The notes below the pieces were generated by a model, which saw only the letters and a list, made by a program, of their open reading frames with translations, ran no database searches and had not been told where the DNA came from. This document shows positions 19,880 through 38,700 of a stretch of 64,000 nucleotides of DNA, piece by piece. A program made the translations under genes and the position numbers. The DNA comes from Legionella antarctica (lineage in GTDB: Bacteria > Pseudomonadota > Gammaproteobacteria > Legionellales > Legionellaceae): the NCBI RefSeq assembly GCF_011764505.1, contig NZ_AP022839.1, positions 2,897,001 to 2,961,000 of the forward strand, given 5' to 3'. Each line of letters starts with the position of its first letter. The stretch's first letter is position 1.

Positions 19880-22800
19880 TTAATTACGAATTACCAAGGG
19901 TTGTTCATTTATGCTCCCTGTACTTTCAGGCTCCTTGTCTTTTCTCTTTTTAAAGAAATTATTTACCCCTCCAATGATTTTATTCGTGGCATTAAATAGC
20001 TTATCGATAACACTAGTATCCATTTCCATTTCAAAACATCTGACTGAGTTGATATCATCAAAGTCATTAACAATCATTTGAGAAAAACACGAAAGCATGT
20101 AATTAAGAACCACCTCATCCTGATCTTTCTGACTCATCTTTTTAAAATCTCCGTCACTCTCTAATTTTTTCCACATGTAAAAATTAATGCTGCGTCCATG
20201 ATTAGGATCATAAAAATACGCAGTTTTTTTCTTTGGATCGTAACGTAAAAAGATTGCATGACCCCAAGATGCCTCATCTGGTGTTTGGGTGCCATCTTTT
20301 TTCATCGATTGATGCCCAATGGATATTTTTATAATTCCAGAATTTTTTAATTTTGACTTCTGTTGCTGAGTGACAGCGCTATAAAGTACTTGATAGATTG
20401 AAGTGCAACTGAAAGCGGGTTCATCTGCAAAACGCGCATCTGCATGTAGTTGTTGAATTTTCTTTAGATGAAGACGTTTTAACACAGCTTGAGATAGACC
20501 ATTGTTACTGGCTATCCCCACATCTACTTGATATAAAGCTTGGGTATAGCGATCTTGTGGTGAGATTTTCACTTCCGCTTTCCAGTGTAAATCTGAAAGT
20601 GTCTCATTTCGGGCTATGCTGGTCATTTCTCGAGTAATCACTCTGTAAGCATTTGCTTGACACACTCCATTTCCTAATATCTCGCAATCCCCGCCAATAA
20701 ATCCCTGAATATTTTCATACTGAATTGGATTTCCCCAAACCTTAAAAAATTCAATGTCTTGATTAACGTCTGTTGGCAGCATTGTTTGTATATGACTGGA
20801 AAACATACCATTTGAAGGGGATAGAACCTCTTTTACCTTGACATACTGATCCGTTAATACAGCCAACCTGTCTTTGTTGTCTGTAATTTTTTTATCTATA
20901 AAGCGACCTAAAGTATGCAACAGTCTGCTTTTTGATCGTTGCAAAGAGCTTTCAATATGCTGAGAGATATTTTCATTAGAGTCATTGAGTTTCTTTTTGC
21001 ATTTCTCAGATTCTTGTTCTATCAAATCACTTGCTGTTGAGAGAATTTCTTGTCTCGCTTTAGTTAGCATGTGAATCAAGGGAACTAAAGAAGGTTCACC
21101 ACCCGCAGCAATAATCTTTTCCTTCAAAGCCATGAGCTCAATCTGATGTTGCAGCTCTTTTAGTGTTGGGATCTCATTTTCGGCCTGACCATTAAGTACT
21201 GCATTTTGTATCACATGTTTGATTTTTTGCTGGACCAGCTCTTTATTCACTTTAATTTTGTTAGGGTCTAAGCCAAGAGCCGAAAAAACAGCCATTTCAT
21301 GTGGGTTTTGGAGGAATTTTTCAGGGTGCGCAATTTGCTGATGTACAAAGGCTCGCTTTAACACAAGAGAAAAATCCTCAAAATACTCTTTAGATAACTG
21401 AGTTAGAGCACGCTTTAACTTCGGGAACATTTTAATTACTACTTCTTCTTGAGCGGTAACCTCACCTTGCTTGAGTTTTACAGTTAATTTGGCCATTTCT
21501 TCATTGTATTGCTGGAGTGTCATTTCTCCTTGAGCATATGCGATAATACGAAGTTTATCAGACTCAGTCATCATCCGATGGCTATCACGAATGTCAGTTC
21601 CGATAACATCCCAATCGCAAATCATTAGTTCAGCTTTTTCTTTACCAGCAATAGATTCCAAGCGATCATAAAGATCGATAAGGGCTGCACGATTACACGC
21701 TGAGCGAACATTCACCACAAATTGATCCAGTACCAAAACATTCTTAGGGTTATCGTTTATTGCAGGTTTATCTGTCATATGCTCAATAACATGCTGAATG
21801 TCACGAACTATTACAGGAGCTAACCTGGCTGCATGGTCAACATGCTCGTCCTTCATCATCTGGGTTACTAGCTGTATCGGATTTGTATTAACCAGTGAGA
21901 GAGATTCAAGAACAGTATCTTCATCTGCGATTTTTTTTAATTGCACCGACAAGATTTGAAAAAATGCTTCATTATCTATTTGTTTTGAACCTGTTTCAGA
22001 ATGAGTTCGCTCGATTGCAACATCAAAACCCGCTGGTGAACCCTCCCACTTTTTTTTCATATCTTCAATCATAACTATCCTGCTATGCTGTTGCTCAGCA
22101 ACAAGAATTATTTTTTCCATAAACTCATTTATCTCAGATATTAAGCGTAATGGTGGCGTGTTATCATCAAGACGTTTGGAGGTAGGCCAGTGGCTTTCAT
22201 ACAATTGTTCAAAAGGTACATTTGAACAATATTCTGCGCATTTTTGTCTCAGTTGATCAAGGATGGTCGTGTTTATTACTGCTAACAACTGGTTAACTGA
22301 ACTTCGATGTATTGTTTGCCAATATTCAAAACTGTCAGGATGAATATTAAGCTGCATGCTGTCTGGAAACAGCTCTTTTTCTTTTATCAATTGTATAACA
22401 GCGGAACTATTAAAAGCACTTAATTTCTCAGGGCTGCTCCCTGGGTTAAAGCCTTGCCAAAGCTCAGCCAGATAAGTCTTGGGGCATGATTTCATTAAGG
22501 AGAAAGCATCTAAAGCCAATAACTCTTGCTTAAATTGCTCCAGATTAATGATCAGTTGCTGTTTGTATTCATTTATATTTGGAAGTGTATCTTGGTTCTG
22601 GGCATAAAAATGGCGTGCTGTTTTCTGAAAAAGCCATTTTTTCAGAACTTCGATATTAAAGATTCTTAATTGCTCCTCACTTACTTCCTGGGGCCAATCG
22701 CCATTCTTTTTCCAATAATCACCAGTATTAAAATAGTCACATATTTGTCGTAGAGAAATCACATCCTCTATGGATTCTAATGCAGTGGGAACTGCACTCA

Positions 22801-23005
22801 TCATCCATGCCATTTTAGGATTATATGCAACGTTTATTGCCTTTACATACTCTGAGAAGCGATTTGATTCAACATTATAGTTGTCATCATTTGTGTTAAC
22901 TGTAGGGTATATCTCTGGAGGTGGAGGTGGGATGAAATCTTCATCAATGAAGTGTGGAAAATCATAAACAAAAATATGTGTTCCACTAGATACATAAGAA
23001 GGCAT
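19880..23005 (-). CDS. Putative Dot/Icm effector with C-terminal YopT/C58-like cysteine protease
   Basis: A 1041-residue soluble protein with no signal peptide or membrane segment. Residues ~60-770 are helical and rich in charged residues, with possible coiled coils (for example around residues 640-720). I do not recognise this part. The C-terminal ~270 residues carry a papain-like triad in YopT/AvrPphB style: Cys782 in GNGVCQANAYRVI, His916 in SWGHAIFLRYDP and Asp933 in AYFYDPNHGR. The spacings (134 and 17 residues) are close to those of C58 proteases. The tail ends in a polar KKRKDKEPESTG stretch followed by INEQPLVIRN, compatible with a type IVB signal but not a textbook E-block. It stands alone on the minus strand. 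A conserved YopT domain in a Legionella-type large protein suggests a translocated effector cleaving host proteins. Confidence 0.7.
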   Translation of the reverse strand: MPSYVSSGTHIFVYDFPHFIDEDFIPPPPPEIYPTVNTNDDNYNVESNRFSEYVKAINVAYNPKMAWMMSAVPTALESIEDVISLRQICDYFNTGDYWKKNGDWPQEVSEEQLRIFNIEVLKKWLFQKTARHFYAQNQDTLPNINEYKQQLIINLEQFKQELLALDAFSLMKSCPKTYLAELWQGFNPGSSPEKLSAFNSSAVIQLIKEKELFPDSMQLNIHPDSFEYWQTIHRSSVNQLLAVINTTILDQLRQKCAEYCSNVPFEQLYESHWPTSKRLDDNTPPLRLISEINEFMEKIILVAEQQHSRIVMIEDMKKKWEGSPAGFDVAIERTHSETGSKQIDNEAFFQILSVQLKKIADEDTVLESLSLVNTNPIQLVTQMMKDEHVDHAARLAPVIVRDIQHVIEHMTDKPAINDNPKNVLVLDQFVVNVRSACNRAALIDLYDRLESIAGKEKAELMICDWDVIGTDIRDSHRMMTESDKLRIIAYAQGEMTLQQYNEEMAKLTVKLKQGEVTAQEEVVIKMFPKLKRALTQLSKEYFEDFSLVLKRAFVHQQIAHPEKFLQNPHEMAVFSALGLDPNKIKVNKELVQQKIKHVIQNAVLNGQAENEIPTLKELQHQIELMALKEKIIAAGGEPSLVPLIHMLTKARQEILSTASDLIEQESEKCKKKLNDSNENISQHIESSLQRSKSRLLHTLGRFIDKKITDNKDRLAVLTDQYVKVKEVLSPSNGMFSSHIQTMLPTDVNQDIEFFKVWGNPIQYENIQGFIGGDCEILGNGVCQANAYRVITREMTSIARNETLSDLHWKAEVKISPQDRYTQALYQVDVGIASNNGLSQAVLKRLHLKKIQQLHADARFADEPAFSCTSIYQVLYSAVTQQQKSKLKNSGIIKISIGHQSMKKDGTQTPDEASWGHAIFLRYDPKKKTAYFYDPNHGRSINFYMWKKLESDGDFKKMSQKDQDEVVLNYMLSCFSQMIVNDFDDINSVRCFEMEMDTSVIDKLFNATNKIIGGVNNFFKKRKDKEPESTGSINEQPLVIRN

Positions 23006-23400: not shown

Positions 23401-25707
23401 ATGAGACAACAGAAAATGAATACCCGTATATTTCGTATATATACTAAACGCTATTTAAAATTTGATATTGTGGCCGCGATAGTTGTATTTCTTGTAGCAA
23501 TACCTCTGTGTTTGGGTATAGCTTTGGCTTCTGGTGCCCCCTTATTTTCAGGAATATTAAGTGGAATCATAGGTGGTATTATCGTTGGTAGTTTAAGTGG
23601 CTCTCAGGTAAGTGTTAGCGGTCCTGCTGCGGGTATGGCTGCCGTTGTCGTGGCCGCAATTGTCCATTTGGGTGATTTCAATACTTTTTTGTTGGCTTTG
23701 GCTTTAGCAGGCATTCTCCAAATAGTGATTGGTATTTTTAAAGCAGGTTTCGTTGCCGATTATGTACCATCCAACGTTGTTCAAGGTTTACTTTGCGCCA
23801 TAGGCATTTTATTAATTATCAAACAATTACCATTAGCTTTCACTCTTTCAGCTGATTTTAATGAACTTAAAACCCATCTATTAGAAACCACAGAAGGTCT
23901 TACTTTAAGCCCTATATTAGCCCTGTACCACCATCATATCAATTCAGGTGCCATGTTAATTACCAGCATGTCTTTAGCTATTCTAATTTTCTTTGATTTA
24001 ACTAAAAATAAAATTTTGAAAGAAATTCCTGCTCCCATTATAGTTGTTATCATTGGCGTTTTCTTAAATCAAATTTTTATCTGGACCGATTTACCCTTAG
24101 TACAAAATTCTCCCCAACTGGTTAACATTCCGAAAACAACGGGTTTGCACGATTTCTTTAGTCATCTGGAATTTCCTCATTGGTCTTCCTGGTCTAATCC
24201 CCAAGTGTATCTCTATGCATTAATATTGGCTATTGTTGCTTCACTGGAGACCTTGCTAAATTTGAAAGCAGGAGATCGATTGGATAAAAAAAGACGCAAC
24301 AGTTCTTCTGATCAAGAGTTAATAGCCCAGGGAGTAGGTAATCTGACCGCGGGTTTAATTGGAGGGATTCCCATTACTTCAGTGATAATTAGAACGTCGA
24401 TCAACATACAGGCAGGTTCTAAAACCAGGGTTTCTACTATTCTACACGGTGTTTTTATCTTGATTGCGGTCATGCTCTTGCCGGGAGCTTTGAATAAAAT
24501 TCCCCTATCTTCTCTGGCGGCGATTTTAATCTACACTGGTTATAAATTAAATAAACCAGCCATTTATCGCCATATCTACTCTCAGGGTAGAGATCGGTTT
24601 ATCCCATTTATAGTAACCGTTGTGAGTATTATTGCTTTTAACCTACTTGCTGGAATTTTAATAGGTCTGTCTATTAGTCTGTTCTATATATTAAAATCAA
24701 ACAGCCAAACCCGAATCAATATCTTTAAAGAAATCTATCCCAATGGAGTTACCAGTCGTCTGGTGCTTCCGCAACAAATGACTTTCCTGAATAAAGCAGC
24801 TTTAGTTGCCGAATTGGAATCTATACCCAGATTTGCGCAACTTGTTATCGATGCGCGCTACAGCCAATACATTGATAAAGAAATTCTGGAGTTATTAGAT
24901 GTATTCAAAGACGAACAAGCACCCAGTAAACATATTTCTTTGAATTTAACTGGCTTCAAAGAAAGTTATAAAATTCATAACTACATCGATTTTATTAACG
25001 TCACTACTTATGACGTGCAATCAAACCTTACCCCGGCAGAAGTATTAAATATTTTGCATGAAGGAAATCAGCGTTTTCTTCACGACACCCGTATTCACCG
25101 CTCGAATCACATTGACATCAAACATACTGCTAAAATGCAACATCCTATAGCAGTTGTTCTTGCATGTATTGATTCAAGAGTGCCTGTAGAAACCATTTTT
25201 GATATGACTTTTGGTGATATATTTTGCGTGCGTATTGCCGGTAATGTCATTAATGCTGATATTCTGGCCAGTATCGAATATGCCTGTAAGGTAGTAGGAG
25301 CCAAGCTTATAGTTGTTTTAGGCCATACTCGATGTGGAGCTATCCAATCTGCCTGTGATGGAATCGAGGCAGGACATATTACTCAGTTACTTGCAAAAAT
25401 AAAGCCTGCTTTAAAAGCTGAAACCCAAACTGAGACTAACAGAACTGGGCTAAACACCGACTTTGTAAACCATGTTACAGAATTAAATATTGCGAATACG
25501 CTGCAATGTATTTACCTGCAAAGTGATATTGTAGGCACCATGATAAAAGAGGATGAAATTGGTATGGTAGGGGCGATGTATGATGTGAACAGCGGTAAAG
25601 TAAAATATAAAAACTATACTGAAGAACTGATTCAGCTGGACGTCAAATCAACTAAAGAATTAGCCAGCAAGCTTGACCAGGTTCTGCAAGAAGCAAAAAT
25701 AAACTGA
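23401..25707 (+). CDS. SulP-family transporter fused to beta-carbonic anhydrase
   Basis: A 768-residue fusion. Residues ~20-440 are a SulP anion-transporter membrane domain with about ten or more hydrophobic segments, including LSGSQVSVSGPAAGMAAVVV, VPSNVVQGLLCAIG and the conserved region ASLETLLNLKAGDRLDKKRR. Residues ~450-560 form a STAS-like linker (LVIDARYSQYIDKEILELL). Residues ~565-760 are a beta-carbonic anhydrase with the zinc ligands and dyad in CIDSR (Cys589, Asp591, Arg593) and GHTRCG (His642, Cys645). Such fusions probably move bicarbonate and interconvert it with CO2 at the inner membrane. AGGA lies just before the first ATG (23401); a second ATG at 23416 is possible. It appears monocistronic. 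Confidence 0.9.
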   Translation: MRQQKMNTRIFRIYTKRYLKFDIVAAIVVFLVAIPLCLGIALASGAPLFSGILSGIIGGIIVGSLSGSQVSVSGPAAGMAAVVVAAIVHLGDFNTFLLALALAGILQIVIGIFKAGFVADYVPSNVVQGLLCAIGILLIIKQLPLAFTLSADFNELKTHLLETTEGLTLSPILALYHHHINSGAMLITSMSLAILIFFDLTKNKILKEIPAPIIVVIIGVFLNQIFIWTDLPLVQNSPQLVNIPKTTGLHDFFSHLEFPHWSSWSNPQVYLYALILAIVASLETLLNLKAGDRLDKKRRNSSSDQELIAQGVGNLTAGLIGGIPITSVIIRTSINIQAGSKTRVSTILHGVFILIAVMLLPGALNKIPLSSLAAILIYTGYKLNKPAIYRHIYSQGRDRFIPFIVTVVSIIAFNLLAGILIGLSISLFYILKSNSQTRINIFKEIYPNGVTSRLVLPQQMTFLNKAALVAELESIPRFAQLVIDARYSQYIDKEILELLDVFKDEQAPSKHISLNLTGFKESYKIHNYIDFINVTTYDVQSNLTPAEVLNILHEGNQRFLHDTRIHRSNHIDIKHTAKMQHPIAVVLACIDSRVPVETIFDMTFGDIFCVRIAGNVINADILASIEYACKVVGAKLIVVLGHTRCGAIQSACDGIEAGHITQLLAKIKPALKAETQTETNRTGLNTDFVNHVTELNIANTLQCIYLQSDIVGTMIKEDEIGMVGAMYDVNSGKVKYKNYTEELIQLDVKSTKELASKLDQVLQEAKIN

Positions 25708-25856: not shown

Positions 25857-27335
25857 ATGTCTTTTTTTCGCTTCTTAAATGGATTCAATCAGTTGTTTAA
25901 CCGAGGCTATGATCGAAATGATAGTCTCATCGTTTCTGAATTGAGATTACGTCAAATTGAAGATTTTGAGAAACAATTTCAAAAAAACCAAGAGGCGCTC
26001 TACTATTCCAAAGAAATGCTACAAGACATAGCCAATAAAAAATTGAGGGCATTATTACATCACGCCAAATCAAAATCTCGTTGGTATAAAAAAACCCTGG
26101 CAAAAATCAATGTAGAGAATTTTACCAAAGAGCGATTGGTCGATCTTCCTACTATAAATAAAACTATTCTAATGGAACATTGGGATGCAATAGTAACCAA
26201 CCCCAAGCTTTCACTAGCCTTGGTTGAAAAGCATCTGAGTAAAAAAAGTGATAAGACCGACACCATGTATCTATTCTCCCGTTATCATGTAGTTTCAACT
26301 GGAGGAAGTAGTGGCAAACGAGGCATATTTATTTATGATTGGGATGAATGGATTACATTTCACACATCGTTTATCCGCTATCCGCTCTACAATAATGAAC
26401 GCACGTATCTTGTAACTAGCAAACTGAATACAAATCCCAAAATTGTTAGTTTGTTTGTAACAAATACGGCAGTTGCAGCCTACTCATTAGCAAAAACCTT
26501 TTGGCGAAATGATGAAAGTGTGTATTTTCTGCCCATGGCGGTGACGCCATTAAACATAGTTATTGCTCGTCTCAACCAAATTATGCCTGATATCTTAACT
26601 GCAGCCCCTTCATATCTTCACAAAGTATGTCAATTAGTTCAAAAAAGACAAATAAAAATTGAGCCCAAGATCATTTTTATTGGTGGAGAGCCACTTTTTG
26701 AGCAAACCCAGGCTTTAATCAAAGAAACTTGGCCTAAAGTACATATTTTTAATCTATTTGGTTGTACTGAAGGAGTAACGGGGCTAAATTGCCGAGCCAA
26801 TACAGATGAGATGCATCTGAATGAGGATCTATGTATTGTCGAGCCGCTGGATGAACAAAATCGCCCTGTTGATCTAGGGATTATGGCGTCCAAAATTTAT
26901 TTAACCAATTTGTATAATTATACTTTGCCACTGATCCGTTATGAAAATTTCGATGATATTTTGTTTTTAAATAAAACCTGTGATTGTGGAATCCAGCATC
27001 AGCTTATAAGAGCCCCTAGAGGTCGTCCTGGATGTGACTTTAATTATCCCGGGAATATTTTTGTACATCATTCTCTTTTTTTACCACCGCTTTTGCTTGA
27101 AAAAAACATTCAAGAATATCAGGTGGAACAAACAAAGAAAGGGGTCAATATTAAGATTTTAGCCACTGGTTTTATAGACAAGTTAAAATTACAGGAAAAT
27201 ATACGATTACGACTAAGCAAAGCAGGCCTCTTTGATGCCAAAGTGAATATCATTGAGGTATCTGAAATAACCTATTTATATTCCGGTAAGCTAAATCGTT
27301 TTATACCTTTGAACCCTGATTCAGCTATTGAATAA
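25857..27335 (+). CDS. PaaK/CapK-like adenylate-forming ligase
   Basis: A 492-residue member of the phenylacetate-CoA ligase-like branch of adenylating enzymes, which activate a carboxylate as acyl-AMP and pass it to CoA or another acceptor. Visible motifs are the ATP loop VVSTGGSSGKRGIFI (about residue 145), AAPSYLHKVCQLV, FIGGEPLFEQTQ, FNLFGCTEGVTG for the nucleotide-binding region, LIRYENFDD, and the paired cysteines TCDCG typical of PaaK relatives. The N-terminal ~90 residues are helical. The substrate is unknown. It faces the ketosynthase gene with only 8 bp between stops, so functional membership in the cluster is likely but not certain. It could supply the starter acyl group for the ketosynthase. 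Confidence 0.75.
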   Translation: MSFFRFLNGFNQLFNRGYDRNDSLIVSELRLRQIEDFEKQFQKNQEALYYSKEMLQDIANKKLRALLHHAKSKSRWYKKTLAKINVENFTKERLVDLPTINKTILMEHWDAIVTNPKLSLALVEKHLSKKSDKTDTMYLFSRYHVVSTGGSSGKRGIFIYDWDEWITFHTSFIRYPLYNNERTYLVTSKLNTNPKIVSLFVTNTAVAAYSLAKTFWRNDESVYFLPMAVTPLNIVIARLNQIMPDILTAAPSYLHKVCQLVQKRQIKIEPKIIFIGGEPLFEQTQALIKETWPKVHIFNLFGCTEGVTGLNCRANTDEMHLNEDLCIVEPLDEQNRPVDLGIMASKIYLTNLYNYTLPLIRYENFDDILFLNKTCDCGIQHQLIRAPRGRPGCDFNYPGNIFVHHSLFLPPLLLEKNIQEYQVEQTKKGVNIKILATGFIDKLKLQENIRLRLSKAGLFDAKVNIIEVSEITYLYSGKLNRFIPLNPDSAIE

Positions 27336-27343
27336 TATAGAGG

Positions 27344-28648
27344 CTAATGTTCATCATAGCTTTGCATCACCAGATGGGTGTTGCTTCCTCCTGCACCATA
27401 ACTTGAAACGCCAGCTAAATAGTACGGTTTTGTTTCGGGAAAATCTTGAAACTCCGTGGCAATATATAGTGGCGAGTCTTCCAACATAAAATCCGGATTC
27501 GGAGTCTCGAAGTTAATTGATGGAACAATAGCCTTATTTTTTAGCATCAGTACTGTTTTGATGATTGACGCCATACCGGATACAATACCCGTATGGCCCA
27601 GATTACTGATTACCGAGCTTATCGGACAACGATTGGTCATTCTAACGTCTTTAAATGCTTTTTTCAGTGCATATATTTCTGTCGCATCTCCTAGCTTGGT
27701 TGCGGCGCCATGAGCTGCAATATAGTCGAGATCACCTGGAGCAATACCTGCATTATTCCAAGCCGACTGCAGACAAGTATATTGACCATGAATTCCTGGT
27801 GCCATGAATCCTTCTTTTGAAGAATTACCATCATTATTCATAGCTGATCCGATAATCACCGCATGGATTTGATCATTATCTGCAATGGCATCTTCAAGCC
27901 GCTTTAAAACAACCAACCCAGCACCATTTGAGTATAAAGTACCGGAAGCTAAAGCATCAAAGGAATGGCAATGACCGTCAGATGAAAATAATCCGTTCTC
28001 TTCATAAATATAACCAGTTTCCTGGGGTAAATCGATTAAGACCGCGCCAGCAATTGCCATATCACATAGATTACTATTTAACTCGCGACAGCTCTGTATA
28101 ACAGCGGTTAAAGAAGATGAGCACGCTGTATATAAATCAATTGAACTTCCTTGAAATCCAAATTGATAAGAAATATAAGGAGCAATGACTTTTGAATAAT
28201 ATCTTTCTATTGCTTTTTTAGTATCAATCGCCTGGTAATATGCGGCACCTAAGAAATGAGCGGCTGGTTGATTATTTGCGCCAATATAAACAGCCGTTTT
28301 TTTGATGTTATTTGACTCACTCCTCATCCTACTCAAAGCACAATGGGTTAAATGCGACATCACTTTACCCTGCACACCCAAGACTTCAAAATTTTTGGTA
28401 GTATTTTTAAATGGAGGGGTATTAAATGATTCTAAGTTATCTAATATTCCTCGGTAGGGTTTGTAGTGATCAGCAGTGATTAATTCCTCTGAAATACCTG
28501 ATCGCCTTAACTGAACTGGTGAGAATTTACTGACAGCCTCTTTGCCAAACTTTAACAGATCCCAATATTCATCAAGATCATTAGCTCCAGGAAATTTTAC
28601 TGCCATACTAACAATAGCAACTTTGTTTGAGTGGTCATTCACATCCAT
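27344..28648 (-). CDS. Free-standing modular-type beta-ketoacyl synthase
   Basis: A 434-residue ketosynthase resembling the KS of type I polyketide synthases (VAIVSMAVKFPGANDLDEYW at the N-terminus) but with no acyltransferase, reductase or carrier domain attached. The active-site Cys176 is in DLYTACSSSLTAV. The two histidines are His313 in AAHGAATKLGDATE and His352 in SNLGHTG. Two departures stand out: the usual lysine of SVKSNxGHT is Ile347, and the MDPQQRLLLE helix is replaced by a different sequence around residues 90-105. It may condense an acyl starter with an aminomalonyl unit from the neighbouring enzymes, by decarboxylation. Start ATG 28648 has a GGGGGC-like site upstream. It lies last in the minus-strand operon after a 198-bp gap. 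Confidence 0.85.
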   Translation of the reverse strand: MDVNDHSNKVAIVSMAVKFPGANDLDEYWDLLKFGKEAVSKFSPVQLRRSGISEELITADHYKPYRGILDNLESFNTPPFKNTTKNFEVLGVQGKVMSHLTHCALSRMRSESNNIKKTAVYIGANNQPAAHFLGAAYYQAIDTKKAIERYYSKVIAPYISYQFGFQGSSIDLYTACSSSLTAVIQSCRELNSNLCDMAIAGAVLIDLPQETGYIYEENGLFSSDGHCHSFDALASGTLYSNGAGLVVLKRLEDAIADNDQIHAVIIGSAMNNDGNSSKEGFMAPGIHGQYTCLQSAWNNAGIAPGDLDYIAAHGAATKLGDATEIYALKKAFKDVRMTNRCPISSVISNLGHTGIVSGMASIIKTVLMLKNKAIVPSINFETPNPDFMLEDSPLYIATEFQDFPETKPYYLAGVSSYGAGGSNTHLVMQSYDEH

Positions 28649-28758
28649 AATTTAAAGCCCCCATTTATGTGGTCTACTGACCACTTATCTCCAGAACGCC
28701 TACGTACCGAGACATCGAAAGACCCGTTGTCCACAGCTTCATTCAATTAGTTTTAATC

Positions 28759-28781
28759 TAGCCTATTTTAAATATAGGCTA
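28759..28781. promoter_or_regulatory. Dyad between adenylation and ketosynthase genes
   Basis: TAGCCTAT and ATAGGCTA flank a 7-bp TTTAAAT spacer, a perfect 8-bp inverted repeat in the 198-bp gap upstream of the ketosynthase gene. It could be an operator for an internal promoter or an mRNA stem. No T-run marks it as a terminator. Confidence 0.35.
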
Positions 28782-28846
28782 TGTTCTTAATTTAAATGAG
28801 ATGGCTATCAAATCCTGGTCATCTTATTCCCTGCAGGTTACTTAGA

Positions 28847-30388
28847 TTAAATGAAACTCATGAGTTGCGCTTTATCTATTTTTCCATTTTCTTTTCTTGG
28901 CAATGAACTTAACCAGATATAATGCTCAGGAACCATATAATCAGGAATTCTGGTTTTTAAAAACGATTTAAGCTCAGCATTGTTAAGCTTTATTTGTTTG
29001 TTATCAGCAATTAGAAACGCGACCATTCTATGATCAAGAGAATCCACTTTCTGGCAGACAACGACTGCATCCTGAATATTGGGATGATCTAATAAATGGT
29101 ATTGTATTTCGTCTAATTCAATACGCATGCCATGTAATTTTACTTGATCATCCTTGCGGCCCAAAAATATTAATTCATTTTCTTTATTCCAACAGACTAC
29201 ATCTCCAGTGCGATACATTTTTTCTCCTGGCAGGTAAGGATTATCTAAAAACGATCCCTGGGTAAGTGCTGGATTATTTAAGTAACCTTGAGCTAATCCA
29301 ATCCCGGAAATGAATAGTTCTCCTGGTTCGAAGCCCGTTGGATTGAGCTGCTCATCTAACACAAAAAGTTGAATATGCTGGATGGGCTTTCCAATTGGAA
29401 TAGTGCGATAGTGTTTTTTTTTTTCACAAATAAAACAGGAAACATCTATTGTGGTCTCTGTGGGGCCATATAAATTGACTAATAGGGTTTCATGATCCCG
29501 AAATAGCTTATTAAATAAATTAACGCTTCTTGCATCCAGCGCCTCTCCGCTTGAGAACACATATTTTAAGGATTCCAAACGATTCATCAAAAAGTCTTCT
29601 TTAATATAACTTAAAAAGATACGTAATACCGAAGGTACAAAATGAATGACGCTTATCTGATATTGCTCAATCATACGAATAAATAACTTAATATCATGTT
29701 CTTTTTTTTGTGGTAAAAGAACCACTGCTGCACCCGCAACGGACCACCAACATGTCTCCCAAACCGAAATGTCAAAACAAATGTGCGTTTTATGAAACAC
29801 GACATCATGAGTTTGTAATGGAAAGGTATGTTGCATCCATACAATCCGATTAACCAGGGCCAGATGGGAAATCATGACCCCTTTAGGTTTGCCTGTAGTA
29901 CCTGAAGTGTACATCACATAGGCTAAATCGTGCTTCTCTCGAAGCAGGTTTAAATTACCCCATTGTTCATGGCTCGTGTTTTCATGAATGCTCAATATTT
30001 GAAGCTCATTTTTATCATCTAACTCATATTTTGCTGTCACTAATGAATTATCATCAACAATTAAAAATTTTACTCGCCCCTCTTCCAGGATAGTTTGATT
30101 TCTAATTGGAGGAGCCTGGGGATCCAACGGCAAATAGGCTCCCCCAGCCTTTAATACTGCAAAGATTGCCACTAACATGTCAAAAGAACGCATGAGTTGG
30201 ATACCGACAATTCCATTTAATGACAACCCTCTTCTCTGCAAATGTCTTGCATATTGATTGGCTTGTTTATTAAAGGCATCATAAGAAATGTCACGATCTT
30301 CCAGATAAATAGCTGTATTTTCTGGATATTGCTTTACTTGCTCTTCGAATAGGGAACAAATTGTGGTGTATTGATCAAAGGATTTCAT
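28847..30388 (-). CDS. Stand-alone NRPS adenylation domain, predicted serine-specific
   Basis: A 513-residue adenylation enzyme without condensation or carrier domains, expected to make an aminoacyl-AMP and load a separate carrier protein. Core motifs are A3 YVMYTSGTTGKPKGVMISH, A4 FDISVWE, A5 NLYGPTETTID, A7 YRTGDVV and A10 NGKIDK. Reading the ten pocket positions against GrsA/EntF gives Asp206, Ile207, Trp210, His249, Phe278, Ser280, Leu306, Ile314, Asp315 and Lys503. That is D-I-W-H-F-S-L-I-D-K, close to the serine codes of EntF and SyrE. L-serine is therefore the predicted substrate. It lies 15 bp after the acyl-CoA dehydrogenase gene. With that enzyme, the hydroxyacyl-CoA dehydrogenase and the carrier protein it forms the seryl-to-aminomalonyl-ACP set. 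Confidence 0.88.
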   Translation of the reverse strand: MKSFDQYTTICSLFEEQVKQYPENTAIYLEDRDISYDAFNKQANQYARHLQRRGLSLNGIVGIQLMRSFDMLVAIFAVLKAGGAYLPLDPQAPPIRNQTILEEGRVKFLIVDDNSLVTAKYELDDKNELQILSIHENTSHEQWGNLNLLREKHDLAYVMYTSGTTGKPKGVMISHLALVNRIVWMQHTFPLQTHDVVFHKTHICFDISVWETCWWSVAGAAVVLLPQKKEHDIKLFIRMIEQYQISVIHFVPSVLRIFLSYIKEDFLMNRLESLKYVFSSGEALDARSVNLFNKLFRDHETLLVNLYGPTETTIDVSCFICEKKKHYRTIPIGKPIQHIQLFVLDEQLNPTGFEPGELFISGIGLAQGYLNNPALTQGSFLDNPYLPGEKMYRTGDVVCWNKENELIFLGRKDDQVKLHGMRIELDEIQYHLLDHPNIQDAVVVCQKVDSLDHRMVAFLIADNKQIKLNNAELKSFLKTRIPDYMVPEHYIWLSSLPRKENGKIDKAQLMSFI

Positions 30389-30403
30389 TTATAAATCCCC
30401 ATA

Positions 30404-31528
30404 CTAATTGACACAAAGCTTGGAAATGAGAATTTCGTGCATTTGTGAGGTTCCCTCGATAATCTCCATTACTTTAGCATCCCTATAATATCGTTCAACA
30501 GGATGAGTTTCCTCAAACCCAGCTGCACCAAATATTTGCAACGCATGATTAGATACAGATACTACCATTTTTGACGCAACGTATTTTGCTACCAAGGTTT
30601 CAGCAATATAAGCTGGATTTTTTTGCTGTCTAAGTAACCCTGCATAAAAACACAATTCTCGCGCAGCTTTAACCTGCACCACCATTTCAGTTATCATTTT
30701 TTGAATCAACTGATGCTCATCTAATGTTCGATTGAATTGTGTTCTTTCTTGAATGTAATCACGAGCTGCATCCAAACATGCTTGCCCTAAACCAACACAT
30801 CCACACGCAGTGGTATAGCGTCCTTCATCCAAAGCAGTTTGGGTAACATAGGTTAAACCCATACCGATAGTGCCTAATAAATTTGTTTTAGGAATTGGGC
30901 AATTATCAAAAAATATTTCTGCCAACATATTCGAGCGTAAACCTAAAAAGCCAGACATCGGAGAAACAATCACACCTGGTGTATTTTTTTCAACTAAAAC
31001 AGTAGTTAGGTGTCCCTGGTAGTTTGCTAAAACTAAAAACAAATCGGCTATTTGCCCTAAAGTAATGTATTTTTTACTCCCTTTTAGAATAAATTCACCG
31101 CTTATATCCAACAATTGAGTTTCAACATGTTCCAAATCACTACCAATATTAGATTCAGTTAATGCTATTGCAGCCAGGGTTTTCCCTGTTGCAATCCGGG
31201 GCAACCAATTTTTTTTCTGCGCTTCCGAACCAAACTGAATAAGTGACTTACTCACCATACCTAGTACCGTTAAAATATTTGCCAAGGAACAAAGCTCCTT
31301 GGCAAATGATTCATGCATTATACCAATGGTCAATTCATCCCATTGTTGCCCACCAAATTGTTTAGGAATACACGCGCCCAAAAAACCATTCTGGGCTAAT
31401 GTATAAAAAAAATCACGGGGAATGCTTTGTTCTTTATCAAATATTTTCGAATGAGGGTGAAGCGAATTTTCTACGAAATGATTAAATAATCGCTTCTGCT
31501 TCATGTATTGATGTTGGTAATCAGGCAA
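30404..31528 (-). CDS. Acyl-CoA dehydrogenase-like flavoenzyme acting on carrier-bound substrate
   Basis: A ~374-residue FAD-dependent acyl-CoA dehydrogenase homologue. Visible are AAIALTESNIGSDLEHVET for the flavin and substrate loop, GSKKYITLGQIADLFLV, VGLGQACLDAARDYIQERTQ, and near the C-terminus VERYYRDAKVMEIIEGTSQM, where EGT holds the usual catalytic Glu. In zwittermicin-type pathways such an enzyme (ZmaI-like) helps oxidise carrier-bound serine to aminomalonyl-ACP, and the FkbI type does the equivalent for methoxymalonyl-ACP. I choose TTG at 31528 as start because AAGGAG lies seven bases ahead. The longer frame to 31588 reads through IS-remnant sequence. It is 15 bp upstream of the adenylation gene. 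Confidence 0.82.
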   Translation of the reverse strand: MPDYQHQYMKQKRLFNHFVENSLHPHSKIFDKEQSIPRDFFYTLAQNGFLGACIPKQFGGQQWDELTIGIMHESFAKELCSLANILTVLGMVSKSLIQFGSEAQKKNWLPRIATGKTLAAIALTESNIGSDLEHVETQLLDISGEFILKGSKKYITLGQIADLFLVLANYQGHLTTVLVEKNTPGVIVSPMSGFLGLRSNMLAEIFFDNCPIPKTNLLGTIGMGLTYVTQTALDEGRYTTACGCVGLGQACLDAARDYIQERTQFNRTLDEHQLIQKMITEMVVQVKAARELCFYAGLLRQQKNPAYIAETLVAKYVASKMVVSVSNHALQIFGAAGFEETHPVERYYRDAKVMEIIEGTSQMHEILISKLCVN

Positions 31529-31643
31529 AATTTCTCTCCTTAAGGTATATTGACTGGTCTTTCGATGTGTCGGAACAAGTCCCGGCACAACGGGTTTTTA
31601 AAGCTCAAAATTGTCAACAGACCCTGGCGAATGCCAACAGACC
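31529..31643. repeat. IS-end-like remnant inside the biosynthetic operon, with 19-bp repeat copy 2
   Basis: The 115-bp gap between the two dehydrogenase genes contains, at 31607-31625, the exact inverted copy of the 19-bp sequence at 3664-3682. A related GGTCTGTTGGCATTCG lies next to it toward the hydroxyacyl-CoA dehydrogenase stop. Further along is a CACATCGAAAGACC segment that partly recurs near 28710 (GACATCGAAAGACCC). This looks like the footprint of a lost insertion sequence. No transposase sequence remains. Confidence 0.5.
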
Positions 31644-32498
31644 TTATTCATATTGATAAAATCCTTTTTTTGTTTTTTGTCCAAGAAGCCCAGCATCTAC
31701 CATATTTTTCAATAACCAGCAGGGTCGGTATTTCGGATCGTTTAGCTCTGAATACAATGTTTCTAAAGAATAGAGAACCGTATCCAAACCAATTAAATCT
31801 GCAGTATGCAATGGTCCCATTTTATGTCCAAAGCATTGTTTAAATAGAGTATCTAGATCTTCGATTGATACAATGTTCTCCTGTATCATAAAGATGGCTT
31901 CATTAATAAAAATCATCATTGCACGATTACTCACAAAACCAACTGAGTCCTTAACAACGATCATTTTTTTGTGCACTTGATCCAGTAACGATTTAGTTTT
32001 TTCTATTGTCGATTCGTCAGTGTGATATCCCTTAATTACCTCTACCATAGGCATTATCGGCGCTGGGTTCATAAAGTGTACACCTATAACACGTTGAGGA
32101 TGCTCAACCAGTGACGCTATTTTAGTAATCGAAATGGAAGAGGTATTTACCCCAAAAATACAGGTTGAGCTGCATTGTTTATTTAATAGTTGATACAAGG
32201 CTTTTTTTTGCTCCCAATTTTCAGGGATATTTTCAATAATATATTCAGATTGCTGCAGTCCATCCAACTTTGTTGTAAAAGAAATTGATGCCAACATTGT
32301 TTCAATGACCTGTTTAGAGGGCAAACTCTTGGTTACTACCTGATAGTGTAAATTTTTAGCTATAGTGTCTTTTGCTTTATCTAATTGAGATTGGAGATTA
32401 TCAATTAAAGTGACATGAAATTTGTATTGCGCGAAAAGTTGTGCAATACCTGAACCCATTGTCCCAGAACCAAGAAGAGTAATTTTTTTTTGTCTCAT
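31644..32498 (-). CDS. 3-hydroxyacyl-CoA dehydrogenase-like enzyme of carrier-bound substrate
   Basis: A complete 284-residue NAD(P)-dependent dehydrogenase of the 3-hydroxybutyryl-CoA dehydrogenase family. It has the Rossmann loop LLGSGTMGSGIAQLFAQYKF, NTSSISITKIASLVEHPQR, the catalytic-His segment VIGVHFMNPAPIMPMVEVI, DSVGFVSNRAMMIFINEA and the C-terminal LLGQKTKKGFYQYE. Homologues in the aminomalonyl- and hydroxymalonyl-ACP pathways oxidise the beta-hydroxyl of a carrier-bound acyl group. With the serine-type adenylation domain nearby, the seryl hydroxymethyl group is the likely target. Ordinary butyrate or fatty-acid metabolism is the alternative, but there are no thiolase or crotonase genes here. 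It is 61 bp after the carrier-protein gene. Confidence 0.85.
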   Translation of the reverse strand: MRQKKITLLGSGTMGSGIAQLFAQYKFHVTLIDNLQSQLDKAKDTIAKNLHYQVVTKSLPSKQVIETMLASISFTTKLDGLQQSEYIIENIPENWEQKKALYQLLNKQCSSTCIFGVNTSSISITKIASLVEHPQRVIGVHFMNPAPIMPMVEVIKGYHTDESTIEKTKSLLDQVHKKMIVVKDSVGFVSNRAMMIFINEAIFMIQENIVSIEDLDTLFKQCFGHKMGPLHTADLIGLDTVLYSLETLYSELNDPKYRPCWLLKNMVDAGLLGQKTKKGFYQYE

Positions 32499-32559
32499 GG
32501 TAGCGTGTCCAATCTGGATGTACTATACAGCCAAACTTTATCACAATTATCAAATTGAA

Positions 32560-32799
32560 TTATAGTTTACTAAAAATAAAGTGAGCGATGTCATCAATAC
32601 TAGTTAGCTGATTTGGATCAAACTCTCCCACATCAAGATCAATTTTATATTTCTTCTCTATAAAAACTAATAATTGAATGTAAAATAAAGAGTGCATTGC
32701 ACCTGTATCAAAAATATTATCAGAATAGCCAATATCCCTAACTCTAAATGAATTGAGTAAAAATAGTTTTACTTCATTTTTAATATGCTGAATTTCCAT
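32560..32799 (-). CDS. Acyl/peptidyl carrier protein
   Basis: A 79-residue stand-alone carrier protein. The segment IFDTGAMHSLFYIQLLVFIE fits the carrier-protein attachment site; Ser39 in the GAMHSL motif would take the phosphopantetheine arm. Helices and acidic stretches (GEFDPNQL, TSIDDIAHFIF) match the four-helix fold. AGGAGG five bases before the ATG indicates strong translation. It is the first gene of the minus-strand operon, with a 184-bp upstream region to the LysR gene that should hold the main promoter. It is expected to be loaded with serine by the adenylation enzyme and then oxidised on the carrier. No phosphopantetheinyl transferase is in the window. Confidence 0.85.
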   Translation of the reverse strand: MEIQHIKNEVKLFLLNSFRVRDIGYSDNIFDTGAMHSLFYIQLLVFIEKKYKIDLDVGEFDPNQLTSIDDIAHFIFSKL

Positions 32800-35767: not shown

Positions 35768-38700
35768 TCACAGCTTTTCACAACAACTAAAAGCTTGACT
35801 TGTTGCTTCAAACTCATTCTCTTCTAATACAGAAGCCTCCATGGTTAGCTGTGTACCACTCAGACGAGCAAAAGACTGACTTGCCTTAAAATTTCTCAGC
35901 TCAATCTCAAAATCATAGAGCTGATCGAGATTTTCAAATCGCTTTATAAAAACACCATTTTTACTGTGTTCTTCATCTATTTTTTCTGCTAAATATTCGA
36001 TTTGATCAGCCAAGGGTTTAGTACCATTAACAGCTTCGATTTCAAGAGCAGCCAAATGAGAGGCTAACTCTTGAATTTTTTTATCTATTTGCGGCTGCAG
36101 AATAGTACTTAACTGAGTATCAGGTATTCCCTTTAATCCAGCAAATTGATAACGCCAATCCTCACTTGTCTCTTGTGGAAATAACGGTCTGACCAATAAT
36201 GACACAAATCTGGAGAAAAAGGATGGAGCGGGTTCTGAGTTTATTCCCCTTATTTTATTATATAATTCAATAAAATCTGATTTTAACTGCTGGTCTTTTA
36301 AGTGATTTATTTGCTCCAGAGTAAAATCAGTCGAATCAAAATCCTTTAATAAATTTCTATCAAAAAAGAGATTTTGTTCTTTTTCAGAAAAACCGTTTAA
36401 ATCATCAGGTACTTTACCCGCAACATAATCTTTTAAAAGGAGTACTTCCTGAATTAGAGCATGATAACTTTCAGGAAATAACGATTGATCCACTTGTTTG
36501 TATTCTCTGGAGTGAAGCAAAGGTAATTGCTTTTGTTGTAATTCTTGCAATATACGGATTCGGGCATTATTTTGCTCTTGCAGGCTTTCTAAGCCTGTAC
36601 GCTCTTGATTAAGAACTGGAACTCTTGAATTGTAACGCATAAAACTATCAAATAAAGGAATAGAGCCAGAACCCTCTATGATTAGATCATAATATTCATG
36701 AAATCCGGTATGAACAGGTGTTATCCTGACACTACCAACCACATACCCCTCTATTCCTTGAAAATGTTCCTGTAATTTCGCCGCTTTATAATCAAAATGA
36801 TTGGTTTTCTTGATTAATTCCTGATGTTTTTGAGAAAATTTATTCCAAATAGTACGAAGCTCACCTCTCAACTCTATAACAGGTTTATAGACTTGCGAAT
36901 TAGATTGATTTAATTCTTTACTGGTCCTGGAAAGAAAATAATATAAATCGTCAATAACATAGACTGTGTTGTTATCACGTTGAATAGAATGAATTTGATC
37001 TTTAATAGTATTCCATTGCAGATTATTTTCTAGCCATGGATTGTGTTGCTCCTCTATTTGGTTCAAAGCAGACTTAAATTGTTTTTTCATCAAATCAGAG
37101 TGCGCATCTTCTTGGCATTTATGAATAAAAGAACCATCCAATTGGTCTTGCCCACTTCCAATAACTGTTAACGTTTCTAACGTTTCTAACGTTTGATTAA
37201 TCAAAGTACTGGTGTTTTGATGACCAAAAGAAAATATCCAAAGTCCTTCAAGTTGTGCTTGATGCTGAATCAAAAGTTTATAAAGATTTTTAAGTGCCAA
37301 TTGCCGAGAAGGAGTATCCGTTGCCTTTTTTACCTCGTCAACAGCAATTAATATCTCTTGCGCTGCAGTTTTTACAGCAGTTCGTTCAAGCCAATAAAAG
37401 AAACCTCTATTCTCTTTGAGGGACCAAGATAAACTAAGCTCAAGATTTTCAGCGATTTCGAAGGCAACATTGCCTATGTATGTTCCTTTAAGCTCTTGCA
37501 ACTCTTTAGTTTCAGGAATACCTGAATACTTGTAAATTCGTATCAATTCGCAAAGGATGGGTTGCATCCGATATTTTTCCGGAAGATCTCTCGCGTGATA
37601 ATCTTTTAAAACTTGTTCAAGAGCTAAAAAATTTCCTGCTGTGCTCAGTCTTTTAATGAACAAATATTTTACATTGGCACTTAAAGAAGAGCGTTCGATT
37701 TCTCGAATAGTATCTTTAACCAGCAATTTAAGCTGACTCTTGGCAAAACCTGATCTGTATTCATTCTTTGAAACATCAGAGTAAACGAGCATGGCTCCGT
37801 TCACATCTAATCCAGAATCCACCACCCTGCTTGTTTTTTTCTGTTCAAGGGCTGTAGTTTTTTTATGATGACGAAGGGCTAGATTTTGGAGTCGCAATTG
37901 ATCACTTAACATCACGCCTTCTAAATAGTTACGACGCAGTGCATTCACCGATTCTTCCTGAATTTTACTTTCGGTTTTTTCCTTAAGCACATTACGATGA
38001 GTTTTCCAAATTAACTCAATACCTTTTTCATAATCCTGTAATGCATTATCTAGTGCCGCTGTTTGTAATTTTTTATTACTATCGCGTCTTACGTAGGGAT
38101 TGGAATAAACATGTCCAGGATCAGAGTCCGTTAAACATTTACTCCATTGATCAACAAGAGAAACTATCAAATCTTCTCTTTGCACAAATAACTCATGATC
38201 TAATTTTTTCCAAACATTTTGGGGGTAAAGCAGATGTAAAAATGCTTGCCATTCATCAAATTGCTTCAATACCGTCAGTTGCATGGTGGCAACTGTTTGA
38301 GTGTAGTAACGTTCAACCGCCAATTCCTGATTCTTTTTTCGCTGAATCCTGCCCACTTCATCCAGAATACTCTTTCGATTTGCTTCCGGCTGGAAAGGCC
38401 ATGAATTTGAAAAAATTGTTCCTTCTTCCTCATAGATAGCAACATATTGGCCGGGTTTACCATTAGGTGATAATTGATCGATAAACTTGCCTGTTTTACC
38501 GGGTGCCTCAAGAAACGTTTGAATACCTAAAAATCCATGTTCATGTTCTGTATTAAAAGTAATATCTTTAATTAATAAAGATGTAGCAATCGTAATAGTG
38601 TTTATTTGACCCGCACAATTTACTGCCCAATTTATTCTGGTTTCTTCTGATTCCTCACCTGTGAAAGCGCCCATCCTAATGTCATTGCCATCATTTTTAA

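What the first reader, a model, noticed from the sequence alone, without database searches (positions are those of the whole stretch)
27344..32799. Aminomalonyl-ACP pathway plus lone ketosynthase: a compact, possibly undescribed biosynthetic system
One minus-strand operon encodes a carrier protein, 3-hydroxyacyl-CoA dehydrogenase, acyl-CoA dehydrogenase, serine-type adenylation enzyme and a type-I-like ketosynthase. The first four equal the set known to make aminomalonyl-ACP from serine in zwittermicin A biosynthesis (seryl adenylation enzyme, ACP and two dehydrogenases). In known cases they feed huge NRPS-PKS lines. Here only a single AT-less ketosynthase is present, implying a one-step decarboxylative condensation that would give a short alpha-amino beta-keto product (aminoketone or a derived pyrazine/pyrrole). 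Such a molecule could be a signal or host-active metabolite.
Basis: partly seen in the sequence, partly recalled or inferred. Interest (0 to 1): 0.9.

Follow-up and report, generated by a model that had tools for sequence, protein, structure and literature searches.

The report
Stand-alone aminomalonyl carbon-joining gene cassette
A small block of six genes in some Legionella looks built to turn the amino acid serine into a reactive building block on a carrier protein and join it to another acid with one free-standing enzyme, a job otherwise described for giant assembly-line enzymes, so it may make a small, undescribed amino-ketone-type molecule.

Summary
The adenylation enzyme carries a serine code (DIWHFSLIDK; EntF gives DVWHFSLVDK); with the carrier protein, 3-hydroxyacyl dehydrogenase and acyl dehydrogenase it matches the aminomalonyl-ACP set of zwittermicin and colibactin. 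The free-standing ketosynthase (KS) keeps Cys-His-His. All six lie together in the same 11 of 45 genus genomes, at several different sites; in one species the block is inverted between shared flanks, in another PaaK heads the operon. A divergent locus (KS 44%, HAD 60% identity) in a 1.4-Mb gammaproteobacterium has the same five genes and a second stand-alone A enzyme, and no megasynthase in the 57 kb read. Twelve lone KSs form one clade (100/100), sister to KSs that follow A-PCP modules. Of 32 AT stretches in the 11 genomes, 30 have GHSxG; the only GYSxG one looks like malonate decarboxylase MdcH. Best reading: serine to aminomalonyl-ACP, then one decarboxylative condensation by the lone KS on that ACP, with a partner acid activated by the second ligase. 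Chemistry and product are unproven. New variant of a known kind.

The parts
32560..32799 (-). acyl carrier protein (79 aa), predicted pantetheine Ser37 in GAMHSL
   Evidence: PF00550 above cut-off; this Ser is identical in 12 of 12 sequences printed, including L161
31644..32498 (-). 3-hydroxyacyl-CoA-dehydrogenase-type enzyme (ClbD/ZmaG role: oxidises seryl-ACP)
   Evidence: PF02737, PF00725; 85-90% identity in 10 genus loci, 60% in L161
30404..31588 (-). acyl-CoA-dehydrogenase-type enzyme (ClbF/ZmaI role: aldehyde to acid); true start probably inside the listed ORF
   Evidence: PF02771/02770/00441; same 11 of 45 genomes as the KS
28847..30388 (-). stand-alone serine adenylation enzyme, code DIWHFSLIDK
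   Evidence: TIGR01733 388 bits; code by alignment with EntF
27344..28648 (-). free-standing ketosynthase, Cys176-His313-His352, no AT/KR/ACP domain
   Evidence: PF00109, PF02801; the three residues invariant in 11 and in L161
25857..27335 (+). PaaK/F390-synthetase-like adenylate-forming ligase, invariant Lys478; proposed to activate the partner acid
   Evidence: TIGR02304 97 bits, below its cut-off of 251.9; adjacent in 11 of 11 cassette genomes of the genus; alignment of 9
28649..28846 (.). 198-bp gap between A and KS genes with a stem-loop (28759-28781) and one copy of a 24-nt repeat (28704-28727)

Best explanation
A compact, dissociated (type-II-like) aminomalonyl condensation system. The A enzyme loads L-serine on the ACP; the 3-hydroxyacyl dehydrogenase and the acyl dehydrogenase oxidise the side-chain alcohol to a carboxylate, giving aminomalonyl-ACP. 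The lone KS, related to KS domains that accept aminoacyl chains from NRPS modules, is primed with a partner acyl or aminoacyl group (most likely an acid activated by the adjacent PaaK-like ligase, possibly seryl-ACP itself) and condenses it once with aminomalonyl-ACP with loss of CO2, directly on that ACP and without an AT, giving an alpha-amino-beta-ketoacyl-ACP. With no thioesterase in the block, release would be spontaneous or ligase-assisted and lead to a small aminoketone or a heterocycle from it. Shown: gene content, conservation, serine code, conserved catalytic residues, linkage, KS kinship. Inferred: every chemical step, the AT-free condensation, the role of PaaK, and the product.
For: Serine code in 11 of 11 genus orthologues (9 DIWHFSLIDK, 2 DVWHFSLIDK; EntF DVWHFSLVDK), G107 DIWHFSLIDK and G182 DVWHFSLIDK. 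No FkbH-like hit at E<1 in 14 sequences: the window, ten orthologous loci, and L161-L163 of G182/G107, against 55 of 72 outside loci with FkbH. KS and acyl dehydrogenase in the same 11 of 45 genomes; all six genes adjacent in 11 of 11 (PaaK in two frames in L043). Block inverted between the same flanks in L039. dN/dS 0.06-0.19 for the five genes tested. Independent locus L161: the same five genes plus a second A enzyme, PPTase and MFS exporter close by, oxygenase-type genes further on, and no megasynthase in the 57 kb read. Twelve lone KSs form one clade 100/100, sister 100/100 to nine A-PCP-KS proteins. AT motifs: 32 of 32 AT places found in the 11 genomes were read; 30 GHSxG, 1 GTSLG, 1 GYSLG; the GYSLG one (G013 only, below the Pfam cut-off) best matches malonate decarboxylase MdcH and adjoins an MdcB-like gene. 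ZmaF, the aminomalonyl-specific AT, is GYSLG (table in PMC4207774). G003, G016 and G040 have no AT inside a large synthase.
Against: No chemistry. All 11 genomes also encode condensation domains and at least one AT, so a separate assembly line could take the extender. The KS gene has its own gap and in L048 runs divergently, so co-expression is unproven. PaaK has no match in G182 (E<=0.001), and in nine genus genomes it exists without the cassette, in 8 of these near DIT1/PvcA-like and FMN-dehydrogenase-like genes, so its tie to this chemistry is not exclusive. The acyl-dehydrogenase branch is long (1.33) and only weakly placed, not inside a proven aminomalonyl clade. In the four-gene comparison the KS is no more conserved than the HAD. 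The AlphaFold model of PaaK was poor (mean pLDDT 46) and was not used.
Confidence: 0.58

Rival explanations
1. The cassette only supplies aminomalonyl-ACP, as in zwittermicin and colibactin, to a PKS/NRPS encoded elsewhere in the genome; the lone KS is an accessory or loading enzyme.
For: All described uses that I recall or found feed megasynthases; 59 of 72 outside loci have a KS or A match over 90 bits near the acyl dehydrogenase; all 11 genomes have C domains and ATs.
Against: Of 32 AT places read, 30 are GHSxG, 1 GTSLG, and the one GYSLG looks like MdcH. No AT-PKS protein in G003, G016, G040, and no second discrete AT in G015, G033, G043 (these three do have an AT in a large ORF), so no one kind of AT partner is common to all. 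The KS is as strongly conserved as the pathway enzymes. G182 has no megasynthase in the 57 kb read.
Confidence: 0.22
2. The KS condenses seryl-ACP (from the same A/ACP pair) with aminomalonyl-ACP, so one amino acid supplies both halves, and PaaK acts later, on release or acylation.
For: The KS sister group follows A-PCP modules; one A/ACP pair could make both partners; L063 combines the identical code DIWHFSLIDK with a related KS in one 3225-aa protein.
Against: Sister A-PCP-KS proteins have non-serine codes; PaaK would be left without an early role; no direct data.
Confidence: 0.12
3. The two dehydrogenases make another modified seryl-ACP (for example a dehydroamino acid), not aminomalonyl.
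For: Acyl dehydrogenases of the PigA/RedW type act on aminoacyl carriers (recalled; NCBIfam matches to both, far below their cut-offs).
Against: 3-hydroxyacyl dehydrogenase plus serine enzyme plus acyl dehydrogenase is the published aminomalonyl set (passages in PMC6395733 and PMC12390127); a KS with its decarboxylating residues fits a malonyl-type unit.
Confidence: 0.05
4. Fatty-acid-oxidation genes that happen to lie next to a stray NRPS A gene, or a decaying remnant.
For: HAD and ACAD belong to broad beta-oxidation families; G107 has broken copies.
Against: Linkage in 11 of 11 genomes at several sites, purifying selection, serine code, ACP, and no hydratase or thiolase domain among the eight proteins scanned in and beside the block.
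Confidence: 0.03

Closest known systems
Aminomalonyl-ACP extender pathway of zwittermicin A (ZmaG/H/I/J, AT ZmaF)
   Same: Serine adenylation enzyme, free ACP, 3-hydroxyacyl dehydrogenase, acyl dehydrogenase
   Different: No ZmaF-like AT found and no megasynthase at the locus; a free-standing KS and a PaaK-like ligase instead. Sequences of the zma genes were not compared
Colibactin aminomalonyl genes (ClbD/E/F/H with AT ClbG; roles partly recalled)
   Same: Same kind of dehydrogenase and carrier set; ClbC is among the PDB matches of the KS
   Different: Colibactin uses a large assembly line. Its genes were named only, not fetched
Hydroxymalonyl/methoxymalonyl-ACP (FkbH-FkbI-FkbJ-FkbK) modules
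   Same: Related acyl dehydrogenase, 3-hydroxyacyl dehydrogenase, ACP
   Different: No FkbH found; a serine A enzyme takes its place
Hybrid NRPS-PKS KS domains of Legionella (A-PCP-KS proteins, possibly cluster B of PMC5126622)
   Same: Sister clade of the lone KS, 100/100
   Different: Those are embedded in proteins of 2100-2340 aa with other A codes
PaaK/F390-synthetase-related ligases (TIGR02304, FlxY)
   Same: Adenylate-forming core by sequence and a conserved C-terminal Lys (motif reading recalled)
   Different: Below the family cut-offs; in 8 other genus genomes near DIT1/PvcA-like and FMN-dehydrogenase-like genes

Membership tests
Aminomalonyl-ACP biosynthesis | A enzyme specific for serine | tested here: met
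   Code equals EntF in 8 or 9 of 10 positions, V to I changes only; code positions recalled; prediction, no assay
Aminomalonyl-ACP biosynthesis | Free ACP + 3-hydroxyacyl dehydrogenase + acyl dehydrogenase together with the A enzyme | tested here: met
Aminomalonyl-ACP biosynthesis | Acyl dehydrogenase falls in a clade of proven aminomalonyl enzymes | tested here: inconclusive
   long branch, weak placement, no proven zma/clb enzyme in the tree
Aminomalonyl-ACP biosynthesis | Aminomalonyl formed on the ACP | not testable with these tools
   needs enzyme work
Aminomalonyl-fed modular PKS (zwittermicin/colibactin type) | AT selective for aminomalonyl-ACP (GYSxG, as ZmaF) | tested here: not met
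   32 of 32 AT places read: 30 GHSxG, 1 GTSLG, 1 GYSLG that best matches MdcH and is in G013 only
Aminomalonyl-fed modular PKS (zwittermicin/colibactin type) | Megasynthase encoded at the locus | tested here: not met
   ORFs of up to 20 kb around 11 cassettes: largest neighbours 1291, 1364 and 1824 aa, not domain-scanned; tblastn with the window KS and A gave no second KS or A there. G182: 57 kb, ORFs over 800 aa are pyruvate dehydrogenase and PutA types
Hydroxymalonyl/methoxymalonyl-ACP pathway | FkbH-like glyceryl transferase | tested here: not met
   no hit at E<1 in 14 sequences searched; 55 of 72 outside loci have it
Type II PKS/FAS condensing pair | KS with chain-length-factor partner, or FabF-type KS | tested here: not met
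   no second KS at the window locus; FabF models score far lower than type I ones
PaaK phenylacetate-CoA ligase | Score above family cut-off | tested here: not met
   25 bits against cut-off 646

The most novel reading that the evidence does not exclude
A new dissociated polyketide architecture: one free-standing, hybrid-type KS that uses aminomalonyl-ACP directly on its biosynthetic ACP, without AT or megasynthase, in a single C-C bond-forming step, giving a family of small alpha-amino-beta-keto metabolites in Legionellaceae and at least one distant small-genome gammaproteobacterium.
Probability: 0.5. Interest if true: 0.8.

Novelty: new variant of a known kind. Interest (0 to 1): 0.63.

Why it matters
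Aminomalonyl is a rare extender unit; the cases I recall or found (zwittermicin, colibactin) use it inside large NRPS-PKS lines. A five- or six-gene version would be a minimal system for studying how a KS handles an aminated extender, and it points to an overlooked class of small amino-ketone-type metabolites that genome-mining tools keyed to megasynthases may miss. It also bears on how free-standing condensing enzymes can arise from NRPS-PKS domains.

Tried and rejected
Rejected: beta-oxidation operon and decaying remnant (co-occurrence, serine code, dN/dS 0.06-0.19). Rejected: hydroxymalonyl route (no FkbH). Rejected: that PaaK is merely a neighbour (adjacent in 11 of 11, heads the operon in L048).

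Led nowhere: the ACAD tree did not place the Legionella branch firmly (long branch; joined with a Paenibacillus/Brevibacillus group at 91/89). Plasmid tblastn with the A enzyme and the ACAD gave only relatives under 60% identity, and no zwittermicin cluster among the 25 rows listed for each. The PaaK structure model was too poor to search with. The promoter scan was at chance level, 31 against 29.0 expected. A first FkbH motif scan found 2 of 72 loci and was replaced by tblastn with two FkbH-like proteins (55 of 72). The upstream-domain tags were unreliable because loci were cut; the A-PCP-KS reading of L019-L027 rests. The identity of G182 could not be found with the caps left.
Full report
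Observation. The KS matches only the N- and C-terminal KS domains and part of the KS extension; no AT, KR or ACP domain. Its Cys176, His313 and His352 are invariant in 11 genus orthologues and in a distant homologue; that these are the catalytic residues is recalled family knowledge.

Organism. 

Serine specificity. Aligned with EntF of E. coli K-12, the ten code positions (positions recalled) read DIWHFSLIDK in 9 of 11 genus orthologues, the window included, and DVWHFSLIDK in 2; EntF reads DVWHFSLVDK. The two further loci read DIWHFSLIDK (G107) and DVWHFSLIDK (G182). All departures from EntF are Val-to-Ile.

Known set. The passages read in PMC6395733 describe zwittermicin aminomalonyl-ACP formation by an ACP, an acyl-CoA dehydrogenase, a further dehydrogenase and the seryl-AMP synthetase ZmaJ; the passages read in PMC12390127 say that ClbD and ClbF are homologous to ZmaG and ZmaI and make the aminomalonyl unit of colibactin. 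The hydroxymalonyl route uses an FkbH-type enzyme; no FkbH-like hit at E<1 appears in the window, ten orthologous loci, L161, L162 or L163 (14 sequences), while 55 of 72 non-Legionella loci found by acyl-dehydrogenase similarity have one. The acyl-dehydrogenase tree leaves the Legionella branch long and weakly placed, so it neither supports nor refutes.

A sixth gene. A PaaK/F390-synthetase-like ligase (25857-27335, +) lies beside the KS. A KS orthologue (81-89% identity) and an acyl-dehydrogenase orthologue (75-85%) occur in exactly the same 11 of 45 genus genomes, and all six genes are neighbours in each. In ten the PaaK gene converges on the KS; in L048 PaaK heads the operon (PaaK-ACP-HAD-ACAD-A) and the KS diverges. 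In L043 PaaK is in two frames. Flanking ORFs fall into several groups: window with L039; L040 with L046, sharing some with L044 and L045; L041 with L042; L043, L047 and L048 with no flank shared. Between the window and L039 (L. maioricensis) the flanks (SulP-carbonic anhydrase; LysR, ProRS) are the same and the six-gene block is inverted. This marks 25857-32799 as a unit. dN/dS against the window is 0.06-0.19 for KS, A, ACAD, HAD (10 comparisons each) and PaaK (8 comparisons; L043 and L048 left out); dS reaches 1.4 for L048, near saturation. The chance of two sets of 11 in 45 coinciding is 1e-10 if genomes were independent, which they are not.

PaaK elsewhere. It occurs in 20 of 45 genus genomes at E 1e-20: the 11 carriers and nine others at 33-53% identity. 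In 8 of these nine it lies within about 4 kb of a DIT1/PvcA-like gene (isonitrile-synthase family) and an FMN-dependent alpha-hydroxyacid-dehydrogenase-like gene (two examples of each were domain-scanned); the ninth lies on a 4.9-kb contig beside an amidase. In 369 class genomes it was found only in the window's genome and, at 29%, in G280, with no KS or A neighbour recognised by eye. It therefore looks like a small-molecule ligase used in more than one pathway. An AlphaFold model was poor.

Wider distribution. In the order (143 genomes) the lone KS is in 12: the 11 and G107, another genus of the family. G107 keeps ACP, HAD and A, but its ACAD and KS each run over two frames and its PaaK lies elsewhere beside a 2090-aa ORF that begins like a KS. 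In 369 class genomes drawn evenly, only the window's genome and G182 pass E 1e-115; in 398 phylum genomes the 11 matches at E 1e-110 other than the window's own all lie in ORFs of 1387-3920 aa. At most 4 candidates per genome were scored there. So a lone KS of this kind is rare in these samples.

G182. This 1.4-Mb genome of another family has KS (44% identity), ACP (44%), HAD (60%), ACAD (53%) and A (47%) in one minus-strand run with the KS first. An N-terminal KS part and a 134-aa gene (DUF2992) are repeated next to it. The other strand nearby holds a second stand-alone A enzyme (code DVICMGGCLK), a 2OG-Fe(II) oxygenase, an MFS exporter and a PPTase; 2-15 kb further on are a second 2OG oxygenase, a haem-oxygenase-like protein (and a weaker one below cut-off), an alanine-dehydrogenase-like and a styrene-monooxygenase-like protein, whose part in the same pathway is a guess. 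No megasynthase is seen in 57 kb: tblastn with the window KS and A found only these genes, and the ORFs over 800 aa are pyruvate-dehydrogenase and PutA types. Here too the cassette is accompanied by one further adenylating enzyme, as with PaaK in Legionella. That is my main reason for proposing that the second ligase supplies the partner acid.

KS ancestry. In an IQ-TREE run (LG+F+R4, drawn with a midpoint root) the 12 lone KSs (11 genus, G182; the broken G107 KS was not included) form a clade with 100/100 support, sister with 100/100 to nine Legionella KSs that follow an A-PCP stretch. Those A domains have non-serine codes such as DAFCVGGAYK. PMC5126622 (section 17 read) predicts for its cluster B a valine extended once with malonyl; whether the nine are cluster B was not tested. 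By PDB sequence search the best KS matches are mostly AT-less or hybrid synthase proteins by title, ClbC among them (some type labels are recalled).

Is another synthase fed? All 11 genomes have condensation domains and ATs, so this cannot be excluded. PMC4207774 (passages read) lists GYSLG for the aminomalonyl-specific AT ZmaF. All 32 AT places found at E 0.001 were read (20): 30 GHSxG, one GTSLG (G013, L193) and one GYSLG (G013, L212, below the Pfam cut-off). The last would count against my reading, but it best matches malonate decarboxylase subunit MdcH (219 bits, cut-off 298) and adjoins an MdcB-like gene, and it is in one of 11 genomes only. G003, G016 and G040 have no AT in a large protein.

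Mechanism proposed. Ser + A + ACP gives seryl-ACP; HAD and ACAD give aminomalonyl-ACP; the lone KS, primed with a partner acid, condenses once with loss of CO2 to an alpha-amino-beta-ketoacyl-ACP; there is no thioesterase in the block, so release to an aminoketone or heterocycle would be spontaneous or ligase-assisted. Formation of aminomalonyl-ACP I hold at about 0.85, direct use by the lone KS at about 0.55-0.6, the product class at about 0.35; these are judgements.

Literature. Searches for aminomalonyl (23 papers), Legionella with polyketide and nonribosomal peptide (75 papers, 25 listed), two of Legionella / biosynthetic gene cluster / aminomalonyl (189 papers, 20 listed), and related terms listed no title or abstract that describes this cassette. 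PMC5126622 (abstract, sections 13, 16, 17, 20 and term passages read) includes L. parisiensis, a carrier species, but its main text holds no occurrence of ketosynthase or acyl-CoA dehydrogenase or aminomalonyl; its figures and supplementary tables were not seen. Most subscription papers are not in the library.

Noticed in passing
L145-L152 (8 genus genomes), e.g. L146:6428-10590: Conserved trio: PaaK-like ligase near a ~520-570 aa DIT1/PvcA-like (isonitrile synthase family) protein and an FMN-dependent alpha-hydroxyacid-dehydrogenase-like protein; a possible small isonitrile-type pathway.
   Followed up: partly
window 28704-28727 and 31553-31576: Inverted copies of a 24-nt repeat in two spacers of the cassette (0 expected by shuffles); the exact pattern was found only in the window's own loci among 200 loci.
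   Followed up: partly
L161:9695-12928: Repeat of a KS N-terminal part plus a 134-aa DUF2992 gene in G182.
   Followed up: no
L162 and L168 (G107): Decayed cassette (ACAD and KS each over two frames) while a PaaK-like gene sits beside a 2090-aa KS-like ORF elsewhere in the genome.
   Followed up: partly
L212:1050-2839 (G013): MdcH-like and MdcB-like genes of a malonate decarboxylase type, with a GYSLG motif.
   Followed up: partly
window 23401-25707: SulP-type permease fused to a carbonic anhydrase domain.
   Followed up: no
window 19880-23005 and 35768-41242: Two very large proteins (1041 and 1824 aa) near the region, not identified.
   Followed up: no
L063:1-12200: Gammaproteobacterial MAG with a 3225-aa protein holding an A domain of the identical code DIWHFSLIDK and a related KS, beside ACP, ACAD and FkbH-like genes.
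   Followed up: partly
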